Source: Cryptosporangium minutisporangium | GTDB lineage: Bacteria; Actinomycetota; Actinomycetes; Mycobacteriales; Cryptosporangiaceae | Length of the DNA stretch: 64,000 bases | Direction: 5' to 3' | NCBI RefSeq assembly: GCF_039536245.1 | Contig: NZ_BAAAYN010000012.1 | Span: forward strand, 62,001 to 126,000 | In this document: positions 12,423 through 57,166 of the stretch, piece after piece | Position numbering within the stretch: position 1 is the first letter of the stretch | Layout of the letters: each line of letters opens with the position of its first letter | Notes under the pieces: model-generated | Databases searched by the model: none | Seen by the model: the letters and a program-made list of their open reading frames with translations, nothing else | What the model was told of the DNA's origin: nothing | Program-made: the position numbers and the translations under genes

Positions 12423-12535
12423 CGAAGGTGGAGCCCGCCGAGGACGAGGCTGGCAGTTGAGCGCGAGGCGCCGCCTCGACCTTGTGGTGGTCTCAAGGCC
12501 TCGCGCTCGCCTGCCAGGCTCGCCCCTCGGCGGGC
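12423..12535 (-). repeat. Interspersed ~110-bp hairpin element, copy A (reverse orientation)
   Basis: Copy A lies after the SAHH-like gene. Arms 12433-12469 and 12498-12535 pair at about 33 of 37 positions with one bulge. The apical part, read on the minus strand, is GGCCTTGAGACCAC, a few bases, then AAGGTCGAGGCGGC. The same core with differing inner stems appears at 21335-21445 and 55028-55136. On the minus strand the stem is followed by GGGCTCCA as in the other copies. It may be a mobile non-coding element or a structured 3' RNA; no transposase is nearby. Confidence 0.85.
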
Positions 12536-12589
12536 CGCCCACAAAGAGTTGTGTGATGTGTTAGTGGGGCCTGCCCGGTTGAGTTCGAG

Positions 12590-12608
12590 ATAGGTAAGGC
12601 TTACCGTG
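12590..12608 (+). promoter_or_regulatory. DtxR/IdeR-type iron box before efeUOB
   Basis: The sequence TAGGTAAGGCTTACC (12591-12605) contains the near-perfect palindrome GGTAAG-G-CTTACC and matches the 19-bp actinobacterial iron-box consensus at 13 positions. A second, weaker iron-box-like stretch GAGGCTTGCCTTGG follows at 12611-12624. IdeR/DtxR with iron(II) would repress transcription here, so efeUOB should be switched on by iron starvation. The box lies about 130 bp upstream of the efeU start. Confidence 0.8.
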
Positions 12609-12739
12609 GCGAGGCTTGCCTTGGCGTTTCCAGACCGTGAGTGGTGGTCGGAGCACGTCACGTCGACGACCGTCCGCCCCGGCCGTGCGATCCGGGGTGG
12701 GCAGACACCTGGACGGACGGCGACGCAGAGGGGCAGCGG

Positions 12740-19834: not shown

Positions 19835-21343
19835 ATGATCGCCGGTCCCTCGGACCAGCCTGCCCTGTTGTCTGCCCGTAGCCGTCAGGAGCGTGGAGCG
19901 GATCCCGCAATCGGCCGACCCCACGGCGCAGCCACCACGATCGATGCCCTCGACGCAGCGGAAGCCGCGGGCTCGCCGGCGGCCAGGATCGTCCGCCGGG
20001 CGTTCCGCCGAACCTACGACGTCACCGACCTCGCGATGGGCGCCGCCGACGTGCTGCGGTCCAACGACATCGGCACGATGGTCACCGCTGCGCCTGCGCT
20101 CTACCCGCACATGTGGAGCTGGGACGCCGCGTTCATCTCGATCGGCCTCGCCCACCTCGGTGTCGATCGGGCCGGGCAGGAGATCCGGACGCTGCTGGCG
20201 GCCCAGTGGGCGGACGGCATGATCCCGCACATCGTCTACGGCGACCGGGGCGGCTACTTCCCGGGGCCCGGTCGGTGGGGCACCGCCGAGCTGTCCGCGT
20301 CCGCCCCGCAGGCACCGTTGACGTCCGGCATCTGCCAGCCGCCGGTGCACGCGATCGCGGTCGGTCGGATCCTCGAGGTGGCGCGCCGTGGGAGCGCGGA
20401 AGACCGGGCCGCGGGGGAGCAGCTGGTCCGGGACTCCTGGGACGCGCTCTACCGCTGGCACGCCTGGCTGTCGCAGTACCGCGACCCGGACGGCACCGGA
20501 CTGATCGCCGTCGTGCACGGGTGGGAATCCGGCATGGACAACTCGCCGCGCTGGGACCAGCCGTACACGGCCGTCGTTCCCGGCCCCGACCTGCCGCCGT
20601 ACGTGCGCCTCGATCGGGAGCTGGTGCGGGACGGGGCCGAGCGCCCGACCGACCTGGAGTACGACCGCTACCTCTGGCTGATCGAGGAGATGCGTCGCGC
20701 CTCCTACGACCCGGTGAAGGTGTACGACACGTGCAGCTTCCTGGTGGCCGACGTTTTTGTCAGCGCGATCTTCGCGGTCGCGTCCGACGTCCTGGCCGAC
20801 CTCGGTGAGGAGTTCGGGCAGCCGGCGGCGCACGTCGCCGAGCTGCGGACCTGGGCGGCCCGGTCGCGTGCGGCGGTCGCTGCCTCGTGCCACCCGGAGA
20901 CCGGCCTGGCCCGGGACTTCGACCGGCGCACCGGTCAGTGGATCGACGTCGAGACCCTCGCCGGGTTCGCGCCGCTGATCTGTGGCGGTCTCGACGCCGA
21001 CGCCGAGCGAGCACTGCTGGCGACGCTGCACGGGCCGCGGTGGGCCGGGCACCCCGAGCTGGTGGCCAAGGTGCCGCCGACGGTCTCGCCGGACTCCGCG
21101 GGCTTCAAGTCCCGCGAGTACTGGCGTGGTCCGCAGTGGCCGGTGGTCTCGTGGCTGTTCGGGTGGGCGCACGCCCGACACGGTCACACCGCTGCGGCGG
21201 CGACGCTCCGCACCGAGACGCTGAAGCTGGTCGGCGACGGCGCGTTCTCGGAGTACTACGAGCCGGTGACCGGCGAGGCGCTCGGCTCCCGGATGCAATC
21301 CTGGACCGCCGCCGTAATTCTGGACTGGTGCACGGCCCGCTGA
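19835..21343 (+). CDS. ggH: Glucosylglycerate hydrolase-like glycosidase (GH63 type)
   Basis: 502 residues from ATG 19835 (GGAG six bases upstream); the open frame continues upstream without conserved residues. It resembles the mycobacterial glucosylglycerate hydrolase: VLRSNDIGTMVTAAPALYPH, MWSWDAAFISIGLAHLGVDR, LTSGICQPPVHAIAV, HGWESGMDNSPRWDQPY, REYWRGPQWPVVSWLFGWAH and the end SRMQSWTAAVILDW. The (alpha/alpha)6-barrel enzymes of this family hydrolyse glucosylglycerate, a compatible solute made under nitrogen limitation or salt stress, releasing glucose and glycerate. The Asp of WSWDAA is a candidate catalytic acid. No synthase gene is in the window. The stop codon lies inside repeat element copy B. 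Confidence 0.85.
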   Translation: MIAGPSDQPALLSARSRQERGADPAIGRPHGAATTIDALDAAEAAGSPAARIVRRAFRRTYDVTDLAMGAADVLRSNDIGTMVTAAPALYPHMWSWDAAFISIGLAHLGVDRAGQEIRTLLAAQWADGMIPHIVYGDRGGYFPGPGRWGTAELSASAPQAPLTSGICQPPVHAIAVGRILEVARRGSAEDRAAGEQLVRDSWDALYRWHAWLSQYRDPDGTGLIAVVHGWESGMDNSPRWDQPYTAVVPGPDLPPYVRLDRELVRDGAERPTDLEYDRYLWLIEEMRRASYDPVKVYDTCSFLVADVFVSAIFAVASDVLADLGEEFGQPAAHVAELRTWAARSRAAVAASCHPETGLARDFDRRTGQWIDVETLAGFAPLICGGLDADAERALLATLHGPRWAGHPELVAKVPPTVSPDSAGFKSREYWRGPQWPVVSWLFGWAHARHGHTAAAATLRTETLKLVGDGAFSEYYEPVTGEALGSRMQSWTAAVILDWCTAR

Positions 21344-21445
21344 GAACGACGCTCACAGGCGGCTGCTGCGGCCTTGAGACCACAGCCAGGTCGAGGCGGC
21401 CTCGCGCTCGACTGCGAGCGACGCCCTCCGCGGGCTCCAGGTTCG
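21335..21445 (+). repeat. Interspersed ~110-bp hairpin element, copy B
   Basis: This copy starts inside the last codons of ggH: GCCCGC at 21335 and the TGA stop at 21341-21343 belong to the left arm. It shares the apical core GGCCTTGAGACCAC / AGGTCGAGGCGGC and the flank GGGCTCCAGGTTCG (21432-21445) with copies A and C. With copy C it also shares AGAACGACGCT in the left arm. The outer arms pair at most positions but the inner stem is poor. The rest of the gap to 21522 shows nothing else. Confidence 0.8.
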
Positions 21446-54505: not shown

Positions 54506-55024
54506 ATGCGAGCTGCGCCTCCGCCCCCGGAGTTGCGGAGCCGGAGCTATGAGCGCCGACGGAAGCGCCGACGCCGCCGGCGCATTCTGCTGGCGAGCGC
54601 GGCGGCGGTCGTGTTCTCGTTGACGATCACGTCCGTGACCGCGGTGCTGGTCCATCGCTCCAGCACGGTCGGCCCGGAGAGCCCGAAGGTCGCCGCCGAG
54701 CAGTTGCTGCGCAGCATGGCGCAGAACAGCATCAACGAGTTCGAGCAGGCGCTCTGCGAGCCGAAGCGCTACCAGGCGAGCGCGATCCTGCGCGAGTTCA
54801 ACAGCGGCCTGGTCGACTTCGGCCAGGAGCTGGACGACATCTCGTGGCGCATCACCAAGGAGACCCGTCGCAGTGCGGACGAGGTCGAGCTCGACATGGA
54901 CGTCACGTTGAGGGTCGTGGAGAAACGGACCGGCGAGCCCGACGACCGCCCGTTCCCCATGCGCATGCAGGTCGTCCAAGACCGCGGCTGGTACATCTGC
55001 GAAATCGAGATCCTCACCCTGTAG
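54506..55024 (+). CDS. Membrane-anchored exported protein (DUF4878/Rv0361-like)
   Basis: 172 residues from ATG 54506 (GGAGGG upstream). A strongly basic N-terminus (YERRRKRRRRRRILL) precedes one membrane helix (ILLASAAAVVFSLTITSVTA). The outside domain is a small NTF2-like fold: ESPKVAAEQLLRSMAQNSIN, FEQALCEPKRYQASAILREF, MRMQVVQDRGWYICEIEILT. It may be a conserved actinobacterial surface protein; no enzymatic residues. The hairpin element copy C starts 4 bp after the stop. Confidence 0.65.
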   Translation: MRAAPPPPELRSRSYERRRKRRRRRRILLASAAAVVFSLTITSVTAVLVHRSSTVGPESPKVAAEQLLRSMAQNSINEFEQALCEPKRYQASAILREFNSGLVDFGQELDDISWRITKETRRSADEVELDMDVTLRVVEKRTGEPDDRPFPMRMQVVQDRGWYICEIEILTL

Positions 55025-55027
55025 GCG

Positions 55028-55136
55028 GCCCGCCCAGAACGACGCTGACAGCCGCGCGCAAGGCCTTGAGACCACACAAAGGTCGAGGCGGCCTTGCGCG
55101 CGGATGCCAGCGTCGCCCTGGACGGGCTCCAGGTCC
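55028..55136 (+). repeat. Interspersed ~110-bp hairpin element, copy C
   Basis: The best-preserved fold of the family: arms 55028-55064 and 55091-55127 pair at 32 of 37 positions. Apical core GGCCTTGAGACCAC, then AGGTCGAGGCGGC; flank GGGCTCCAGGTCCG. The inner stem CCGCGCGCAAGG differs fully from that of copy A (GAGCGCGAGG-type) but pairs equally well. It sits between convergent genes and may also terminate transcription. Confidence 0.88.
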
Positions 55137-55159
55137 GTAGCACTACAACTGCCGAGCTG

Positions 55160-57166
55160 CTAGCGGCGGCGGCCGGCGGCTATGGCGGTGCGGCGTTTGA
55201 GGAAGTCTCGGACGACGTACTCGCCCAGGTTGTCGGCGTCGGACGTGAAGATCCGGCCACCGTTCCGGCGCGCCACCTCGGTCATGAAGTCGATCAACCG
55301 CGGATCCTCGCCCAGCATGAACACGTTGATCGCGATGCCCGACCGGGTGGCCTTGTCGACCTCGGCCAGCGTCAGCGCCAGCGTCTCCGGCATCGGCGGC
55401 CACATGAACACCGCTTCGCCGTCCCGCTCCAGGTGAGCGGTCGGCTCCCCGTCGGTCACCACCAGCAGGATCGGCTCGGCGTCGCCGTGCCGGGACAGGT
55501 GCCGCCGCGCCAGCATCAGCGCGTGCTGCAGGTTCGTGCCCTGCACCGGGTCGAAGTCCAGCCCGGCCAGCTCCGCCGGGCGCAGCGGCCGGGCGTACTG
55601 GCTGAACCCGATCAGCTCGATCGAGTCCTGCGGGTACCGGGTGGTGACCAGGTGGTGCAGCGCGAGCGCGGTCGACTTCGCCGCGCCCCACGTCCCGTTC
55701 AGCTCCATCGAGTACGACAGGTCGACCAGCAGCGCGACCGCCGCCCGTGACCGCTGCTCGGTCTCCACGACCTCGAAGTCGTCCACGATCAGCCCGACGC
55801 CGTCGGCCGAGGGCCCGGCGCGGAGGACGGCGTTCCGCACGGTGCGGACGACGTCCAGCGGCTGGGTGTCGCCGAACTGCCAGCCCCGGCTGCTGCCGGT
55901 CAGCTCGCCCGCTCCGCCCGCGTCCGGGATGTCGTGATCGCCGCGCGGCCCGTCGTGCAGCTGGGCGAACACCCGCCGCAGCGCCGTGGCGCCTAGCCGA
56001 CGCAGCGCCTTCGGCGCCAGCTCCAACTGACCGTTGCGGTTCTGCAGCCACCCCTGCCGGGTCAGCTCCCGCTCGATCCGTCGCAGGTTGGCCAGGTCGT
56101 CGACGGCCTCCCGCCCCAGCGCGCGCTGCACGAGCTCTTCGTCGACGTCGTCCAAGCCGGCACCGGCGTACTGCTGACCGAGTTGCCGGTCCAGCGACTC
56201 GACGTCGGAGAGTTCGGCGATCGCGCTGGTGGCGTCGCCCATCCCCATGCCTTCCTGGCCGGACATCCGTGGGTCGCCGCCCCACCGCAGGTCCGGACGG
56301 GCGGCCCGGAGCTGCTGGTTGAGCCGCTCCAGCTCGGTGGAGAGCCCGAGGTCCCCGCCGAACATGGAGTCCATCAGGCTGCCCAGCTCGGCCCGTTGCT
56401 CGGCCGTGAGGCCGTCCATCATCCGCTGAGTAGCGGCGGCCCGCCGCGCCAGCTGGTCGATCAGCTCGTCGATGCTGTTCGGCCGCTCCGGGAAGAACTC
56501 GCCGTGCCGGTCGAGGAACCGGTCGAGGTCGTCCTGACCGGCCTCGCCCCGCGCGTGCTTGCTGAGCAGATCGTTGAGGTCCGCGATCATGTCCCGGACG
56601 CGCTGCATGTCCTCGGGCGAGGCGTTCTCGAGCGCCTGCTTCATCCCGGAGAACTGGCTGTCGAGCACCTCCCGGCGCAGCAGGTCCTGGATCTCCTGGT
56701 ACTTGCTCGCGGCCTCGGGGGAGCGCCACTGCCGGTCAGCCAGCGCGCGGACGGCGCTCGCGGTTTCGCTCGGCAGAGCGTCCAGCTCGGCTTCGTCGAA
56801 GCGCGCCAGATCGTCGGGATCGGCGAACAACGCACGCTTCTCCGCCTCGAGCGCCTGGTCGAGCAGCTCCCGGACCTGCTCCAGGGTGCCGTCCAGGCGC
56901 CCGGAACGGCGCAGTTGGTCACGTCGGCGGCGTAGCCGTCGGCGCAGGTCGTCCAGCCCGGAGAGGCCGTCCCGGCCGCGCTGCAGCAGCCGACGCAGTG
57001 CGTCGGCCGGCGTCGAGCCGGCCAGGATGTCGTCGCCGATCCCGTCCAGTGCTTCGCGGACGTCGAACGGCGGCGCGAGCGGGTCGGCACCGCCCGACCA
57101 GCGGCCGTACCGGTACCCGCCGCGTCGGCGAGGGGGCGGTGGGGGTTCCAGCGGTTCTGCGGTCAT
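55160..57166 (-). CDS. VWA-domain protein, partner of the MoxR ATPase
   Basis: 668 residues from ATG 57166. N-terminal half is helical and charged (QLRRSGRLDGTLEQVRELLD), with helical stretches that may bind partners. C-terminal von Willebrand A domain: MIDAS motif DxSxS in AVALLVDLSYSMELNGTWGA, Thr in VQGTNLQHALML, Asp in LLVVTDGEPTAH. Mg-chelatase-like MoxR/VWA pairs work as chaperones for metal or cofactor insertion. It lies 17 bp after the MoxR gene. Confidence 0.9.
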   Translation of the reverse strand: MTAEPLEPPPPPRRRGGYRYGRWSGGADPLAPPFDVREALDGIGDDILAGSTPADALRRLLQRGRDGLSGLDDLRRRLRRRRDQLRRSGRLDGTLEQVRELLDQALEAEKRALFADPDDLARFDEAELDALPSETASAVRALADRQWRSPEAASKYQEIQDLLRREVLDSQFSGMKQALENASPEDMQRVRDMIADLNDLLSKHARGEAGQDDLDRFLDRHGEFFPERPNSIDELIDQLARRAAATQRMMDGLTAEQRAELGSLMDSMFGGDLGLSTELERLNQQLRAARPDLRWGGDPRMSGQEGMGMGDATSAIAELSDVESLDRQLGQQYAGAGLDDVDEELVQRALGREAVDDLANLRRIERELTRQGWLQNRNGQLELAPKALRRLGATALRRVFAQLHDGPRGDHDIPDAGGAGELTGSSRGWQFGDTQPLDVVRTVRNAVLRAGPSADGVGLIVDDFEVVETEQRSRAAVALLVDLSYSMELNGTWGAAKSTALALHHLVTTRYPQDSIELIGFSQYARPLRPAELAGLDFDPVQGTNLQHALMLARRHLSRHGDAEPILLVVTDGEPTAHLERDGEAVFMWPPMPETLALTLAEVDKATRSGIAINVFMLGEDPRLIDFMTEVARRNGGRIFTSDADNLGEYVVRDFLKRRTAIAAGRRR

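What the first reader, a model, noticed from the sequence alone, without database searches (positions are those of the whole stretch)
12423..12535. Family of ~110-bp hairpin elements with conserved apical core and changing but still paired stems
Three copies lie in unrelated gaps (12423-12535 on minus; 21335-21445 and 55028-55136 on plus). All have GGCCTTGAGACCAC / AGGTCGAGGCGGC at the top, and GGGCTCCA after the stem. Stems of copies A and C differ in sequence but pair over about 33/37 and 32/37 positions: compensatory change, the mark of a selected RNA or of a cruciform element moved by an enzyme. All sit close to stop codons; copy B swallows the ggH stop. I know no named family like this.
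Basis: partly seen in the sequence, partly recalled or inferred. Interest (0 to 1): 0.85.

Follow-up and report, generated by a model that had tools for sequence, protein, structure and literature searches.

The report
Mobile hairpin repeats at gene ends
The three hairpins belong to a previously unnamed family of about 115-bp hairpin-forming mobile repeats, with more than a hundred copies in this actinobacterial genome, that mostly sit exactly at the stop codons of genes; the stem sequences vary but stay paired, and the enzyme that moves them is unknown.

Summary
An exact core search finds 13 copies in the genome (reversed control 0). A covariance model finds about 115 distinct sites, and many more in three congeners. 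A pattern of the two ends hits only the 5 genomes of this family among 399 of the order; the sister genus has the same ends around a different interior hairpin. Covariation is very strong: 63 copies, 37 pairs, 95.4% paired, 24 pairs changed on both sides, no shuffle or slid control close. Many sites are empty, partly deleted, or occupied on the opposite strand in congeners, so the elements move. In this genome 67 of 95 copies start at the 3' end of a same-strand gene, 47 within 0-6 bases of its stop codon, with TAG enriched (30/67 against 18%). G-U pairs are not favoured over A-C, the antisense strand folds better, and certain mismatches are kept in nearly every copy. This points to recognition as folded DNA, not to a selected sense RNA. 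No Y1 transposase or reverse transcriptase gene is found. Best reading: a new family of non-autonomous palindromic (MITE/REP/ERIC-like) elements that land at stop codons, moved by an unidentified enzyme.

The parts
12426..12543 (-). Copy A, hairpin element (118 bp); starts GTGGGCGGCCCGCCGAG, ends CGGCGGGCTCCA
   Evidence: absent at the syntenic place in G002 and G003
12470..12500 (-). Copy A conserved apical core
21327..21442 (+). Copy B, hairpin element (116 bp); interrupts the last codons of the upstream glycoside-hydrolase-like gene (PF22422)
   Evidence: empty in G003 and G001, and with the hairpin mostly deleted in G002
21370..21400 (+). Copy B conserved apical core
21341..21343 (+). TGA inside copy B that now ends the upstream gene
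55020..55134 (+). Copy C, hairpin element (115 bp)
   Evidence: empty in G003, truncated in G002
55062..55092 (+). Copy C conserved apical core
55022..55024 (+). TAG stop of the gene just upstream of copy C
55135..55159 (+). 3' tail of copy C, inserted together with the hairpin: homology with the empty G003 site resumes at CTAG 55160-55163

Best explanation
The three copies belong to a genus- and family-specific, non-autonomous mobile element (MITE/REP-like). The unit is a ~115-bp imperfect hairpin plus a 20-90 bp tail that often carries one or two small hairpins. It inserts with its left end (GTG[G/C][G/A]CGGCCCG) at or just before the stop codon at the 3' end of a gene, most often at TAG, in the sense direction, and then forms that gene's 3' untranslated region and sometimes supplies the stop. 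SHOWN: the family, its copy number, covariation, presence/absence in congeners, and stop-codon adjacency. INFERRED: it is recognised as a folded DNA hairpin (single strand or cruciform) through its ends and fixed mismatches, by an enzyme encoded elsewhere that was not identified. The stems change freely because pairing, not sequence, is what matters.
For: About 115 distinct sites in this genome; 44 matches, including antisense duplicates and fragments, in the complete congener genome G003. Two-end pattern in 5 of 399 genomes of the order, all of this family, with one chance hit of the reversed control in all. Empty sites: copy B in G003 and G001, copy C in G003, copy A in G002/G003, and nearly all of 20 further copies in G003. 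At two loci the relative carries the element on the opposite strand, at or near the stop of the converging gene (L028: at its TAG; L022). Stop-codon adjacency 67/95, TAG 30/67 against 23/130 for all genes, P about 3e-7; in the sister genus 5 of 5 distinct copies sit at a stop codon. Covariation 0.353 against 0.107 for shuffles. At 14 strongly covarying pairs: WC 845, G-U 7, A-C 13, and all 63 copies have at least one mismatch at one of two adjacent positions, as expected for DNA-structure recognition.
Against: No mobilising enzyme found: Pfam Y1_Tnp and RVT_1 have no match in five genomes while controls ring. No clean target duplication; the right end varies and host DNA next to the insertion is sometimes lost (L031, L034, L037). 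No larger copy carrying a gene was seen among the unmatched left ends that were read. No experiment.
Confidence: 0.66

Rival explanations
1. A structured RNA element of 3' untranslated regions (stability or termination element) kept by selection on the transcript, spread by ordinary duplication.
For: Sense orientation at stop codons; strong folding; conserved internal loop CTTGAG/CGAGGCG with T-G pairs flanked by covarying stems.
Against: G-U not favoured over A-C among changes (7 vs 13); antisense folds better in 109 of 113; frequent empty sites and deleted hairpins in congeners suggest it is dispensable; no T-run after the hairpin; no Rfam match in the window, and only one sub-threshold hit to a microRNA family elsewhere.
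Confidence: 0.14
2. A REP-type element moved by a Y1 (HUH) transposase on single-stranded DNA, whose gene has been lost or diverged.
For: GTGG or GTGC two bases 5' of the hairpin foot in 53 of 107 copies, like the GT[AG]G guide of REPs (PMC6006769); mismatched hairpin; in G003 17 of 18 full copies co-oriented with replication.
Against: No PF01797 match in G000-G004, controls positive. REP hairpins are 21-65 nt (PMC6006769), this one is about 110. Mapping 20 G000 copies plus the three window copies onto G003 gives only 15 of 23 co-oriented, so the replication bias is not robust.
Confidence: 0.1
3. Integron-like attC sites: folded single-strand recombination sites following cassette genes.
For: Variable stems with fixed mismatches and a variable, sometimes branched tip resemble attC features EHB and VTS (PMC2727003); position after stop codons in sense.
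Against: No conserved GTT/AAC recombination triplets at the ends (logos); copies are dispersed singly, not in cassette arrays; insertion leaves the neighbouring genes syntenic. The integrase itself was not searched.
Confidence: 0.04
4. The paired changes come from arm-to-arm correction (template switching or repair in the extruded hairpin) and segment exchange between copies, not from selection for pairing.
For: Almost no half-changed intermediates (20 of 882 cells); inner segments look mosaic between copies.
Against: Mismatches at fixed places persist in nearly all copies (cols 22-106, 34/35), which correction should erase. This rival concerns the covariation only and is compatible with mobility.
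Confidence: 0.3

Closest known systems
ERIC/IRU, YPAL, RUP and other bacterial MITE-like small repeats (PMC2229807)
   Same: 100-170 bp, no coding capacity, palindromic, >100 copies, intergenic, mobilising enzyme mostly unknown
   Different: Those usually have terminal inverted repeats and TA target duplications; here no clean duplication, a polar left end at gene stop codons, and different-sequence but paired stems between copies
REP elements with RAYT (PMC3733652, PMC6006769)
   Same: Imperfect hairpin with a GTGG-like tetranucleotide at its 5' foot, high copy number, mostly extragenic
   Different: Hairpin two to five times longer, no Y1 transposase gene in five genomes
attC sites of integrons (PMC2727003)
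   Same: Structure recognised more than sequence, mismatched bases in the stem, variable tip, behind stop codons
   Different: No GTT/AAC boxes, no cassette arrays
Rickettsia RPE elements (PMC2229807)
   Same: 105-146 bp, long stem-loop
   Different: No sequence comparison was made here; different taxon

Membership tests
Bacterial MITE-like small repeat | Short, non-coding, many dispersed copies, presence/absence between relatives | tested here: met
Bacterial MITE-like small repeat | Terminal inverted repeats plus target-site duplication (typically TA) | tested here: inconclusive
   Arms pair from G1 of CGGCCCG inwards but the outermost bases do not; TAG stands on both sides only at site C; right end variable
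Bacterial MITE-like small repeat | Autonomous parent element with the same ends | tested here: not met
   Unmatched left ends that were read are truncated copies without a gene; search limited to exact left-end matches in this genome
REP / RAYT | 5' GT[AG]G at the hairpin foot | tested here: inconclusive
   GTGG 29, GTGC 24, GTAG 3 of 107 copies
REP / RAYT | Short hairpin of 21-65 nt | tested here: not met
   about 110 nt
REP / RAYT | Y1 transposase (PF01797) in the genome | tested here: not met
   0 of 5 genomes, controls positive
Integron attC | GTT/AAC recombination boxes at the ends | tested here: not met
   position logos
Integron attC | Integron integrase | not tested
Group II intron or other retroelement | Reverse transcriptase (PF00078) | tested here: not met
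   0 of 5 genomes, controls positive
Known structured RNA | Rfam match at gathering score | tested here: not met

The most novel reading that the evidence does not exclude
A mobile DNA element directed to stop codons and recognised by hairpin shape (fixed mismatches in an otherwise freely changing stem), moved by an enzyme that is neither a Y1 transposase nor reverse transcriptase based: an unrecognised structure-reading recombination system in actinobacteria.
Probability: 0.22. Interest if true: 0.82.

Novelty: new variant of a known kind. Interest (0 to 1): 0.58.

Why it matters
It adds a high-copy mobile repeat family to a group where none was found described in the papers searched, and shows a case where selection or repair keeps a 110-nt stem paired while its sequence turns over and specific mismatches are preserved. 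If the DNA-fold reading holds, it gives about a hundred natural variants with which to learn what an unknown enzyme reads in a folded DNA. It also remodels gene 3' ends: insertions replace stop codons and terminal codons.

Tried and rejected
Exact core scan of GTDB genome contigs: no hit, records near the window may be left out. Y1 transposase and reverse transcriptase as movers: absent. The small hairpin GCGCCTGGCGGCGC as a gene's own terminator: rejected as the general case, since it is absent from the empty G003 site and kept with an element remnant in G002 at L026. Replication-strand bias: striking in G003 (17/18) but only 15/23 for G000 copies mapped to G003, so not used as main evidence. 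Autonomous partner from unmatched left ends: only truncated copies. A first pair count used a misplaced structure string; one search replaces it. Rfam: one sub-threshold hit of L105 to a microRNA family, taken as chance.

Full report
OBSERVATION. The three copies are present as described. The exact core occurs 13 times in the 9.23 Mb, 152-contig genome, 0 times for the reversed control. A covariance model from these 13 gives 141 matches, about 115 distinct sites after removing antisense duplicates, with only 150 candidates scored, so this is a lower bound. Three congeners have 30 to 61 or more matches each, antisense duplicates included.

DISTRIBUTION. A pattern of both ends with free interior (CGGCCCGCYSAG N70-99 CTSRGCGGGCTC) hits 5 of 399 genomes of the order, all of this family, with a single reversed-control hit overall. 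In the sister genus (G004) five distinct copies have the same ends around a different interior hairpin, and all five follow TAG or TGA directly. The closest outside match of a window protein is Frankia (59%); from this, genome size and family structure I guess Cryptosporangium (own knowledge, not verified).

ANATOMY. Left end GTG[G/C][G/A]CGGCCCG, right end CGGGCTCCA, then GGT and a variable tail (CAGAAC, CGAGCAAC, CCGTAG types). The hairpin has outer, middle and apical modules that vary between copies; the tip exists as several classes, one with a 55-nt extra branch. The tail often has a small hairpin GCGCCTGGCGGCGC (30 exact in G000, 1 for the control), sometimes a further GCGGACG...CGTCCGC hairpin.

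COVARIATION. On 63 copies and 37 pairs 95.4% of cells pair; slid versions give 31-41%; 24 pairs change on both sides; covariation 0.353 against 0.107 for shuffles, 0 of 500 as high. Changes are Watson-Crick to Watson-Crick: in 14 strongly covarying pairs 845 WC, 7 G-U, 13 A-C, 17 other. A sense RNA under selection should favour G-U over A-C. Counting all aligned arm positions, A-C exceeds G-U (278 against 146, of which 96 G-U are one fixed pair), and the antisense strand folds better in 109 of 113. Some mismatches are kept: cols 22-106 are A-C or G-T in 55 of 63, and in all 63 there is at least one mismatch (G-A in 58) at cols 34-93 or 35-92. Relatedness of copies inflates any such count; the shuffles do not remove it.

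MOBILITY. Synteny with congeners shows site B empty in G003 and G001 (gene continues GACTGGCTGGACCAGTAA and GACTGGCTCGACTGA) and with a deleted hairpin in G002; site C empty in G003 and truncated in G002; site A without element in G002/G003. Of 20 further copies, G003 lacks the element at nearly all and G002 is empty, holds a remnant with the hairpin deleted (L026, L042, L069, L087, L122), or has an own copy (L024). At L028 and L022 G002 has an element in the opposite orientation next to the stop of the converging gene (at L028: GGCGGAGTAG|TGCACGGCCC). Some insertions shorten genes or replace 27-40 bp of host DNA (L031, L034, L037). In three cases orthologous genes carry elements of different tip classes (L021/L065, L109/L057, L114/L054), meaning reinsertion or internal exchange.

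POSITION. With a codon-usage gene caller written for this purpose, 67 of 95 G000 copies start within -7 to +30 of a same-strand stop, 47 within 0 to 6; 44 between converging genes, 29 in tandem same strand, 16 tandem opposite, 6 diverging. TAG ends 30 of the 67 against 23 of 130 genes. In congeners the same genes often end in TGA, so whether TAG was the target or came with the element is open.

MECHANISM. The best reading is a non-autonomous hairpin element recognised as folded DNA by an enzyme acting in trans. Family, mobility and position are shown; recognition mode and enzyme are inferred. No Y1 transposase or reverse transcriptase was found in five genomes. Replication co-orientation is 17/18 in G003 (dnaA-dnaN-recF-gyrB at the start of the record; gene baseline 103 of 173) but 15/23 for G000 copies mapped onto G003, so single-strand insertion at forks stays only a possibility.

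CLOSEST KNOWN. ERIC/RUP-like small repeats (PMC2229807), REPs (PMC3733652, PMC6006769) and attC sites (PMC2727003) each share some features; each membership test has unmet or open points, so I file it as a new family of the general small palindromic mobile-repeat kind.

Noticed in passing
L017 (G000:C66 around 2768-2882): An element sits inside the stem of another element and is followed by about three ~60-bp tandem half-element units.
   Followed up: partly
G003:C1:2042946-2043053 (L193): Tandem array of left-half units (CGGCCCGYCCAGAACAAGCCTGACGCTGGAGGG).
   Followed up: no
window 12560-12640: A TTAGGTAAGGCTTACC-type palindrome resembling an iron-regulator box, conserved in congeners, upstream of the FTR1 iron permease gene next to copy A.
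   Followed up: no
G000 genome: The small hairpin GCGCCTGGCGGCGCT occurs 30 times (reversed control 1), usually but not always in the tail of an element; it may be a separate repeat.
   Followed up: partly
G003:C1 (complete genome): All 18 full copies lie in 0.05-2.6 and 6.4-8.9 Mb; none in the 3.8 Mb opposite the origin.
   Followed up: partly
G000:C64:13542-13710 and G000:C17 near 370300: Pairs of elements or remnants in opposite orientation, each at the end of one of two converging genes.
   Followed up: no
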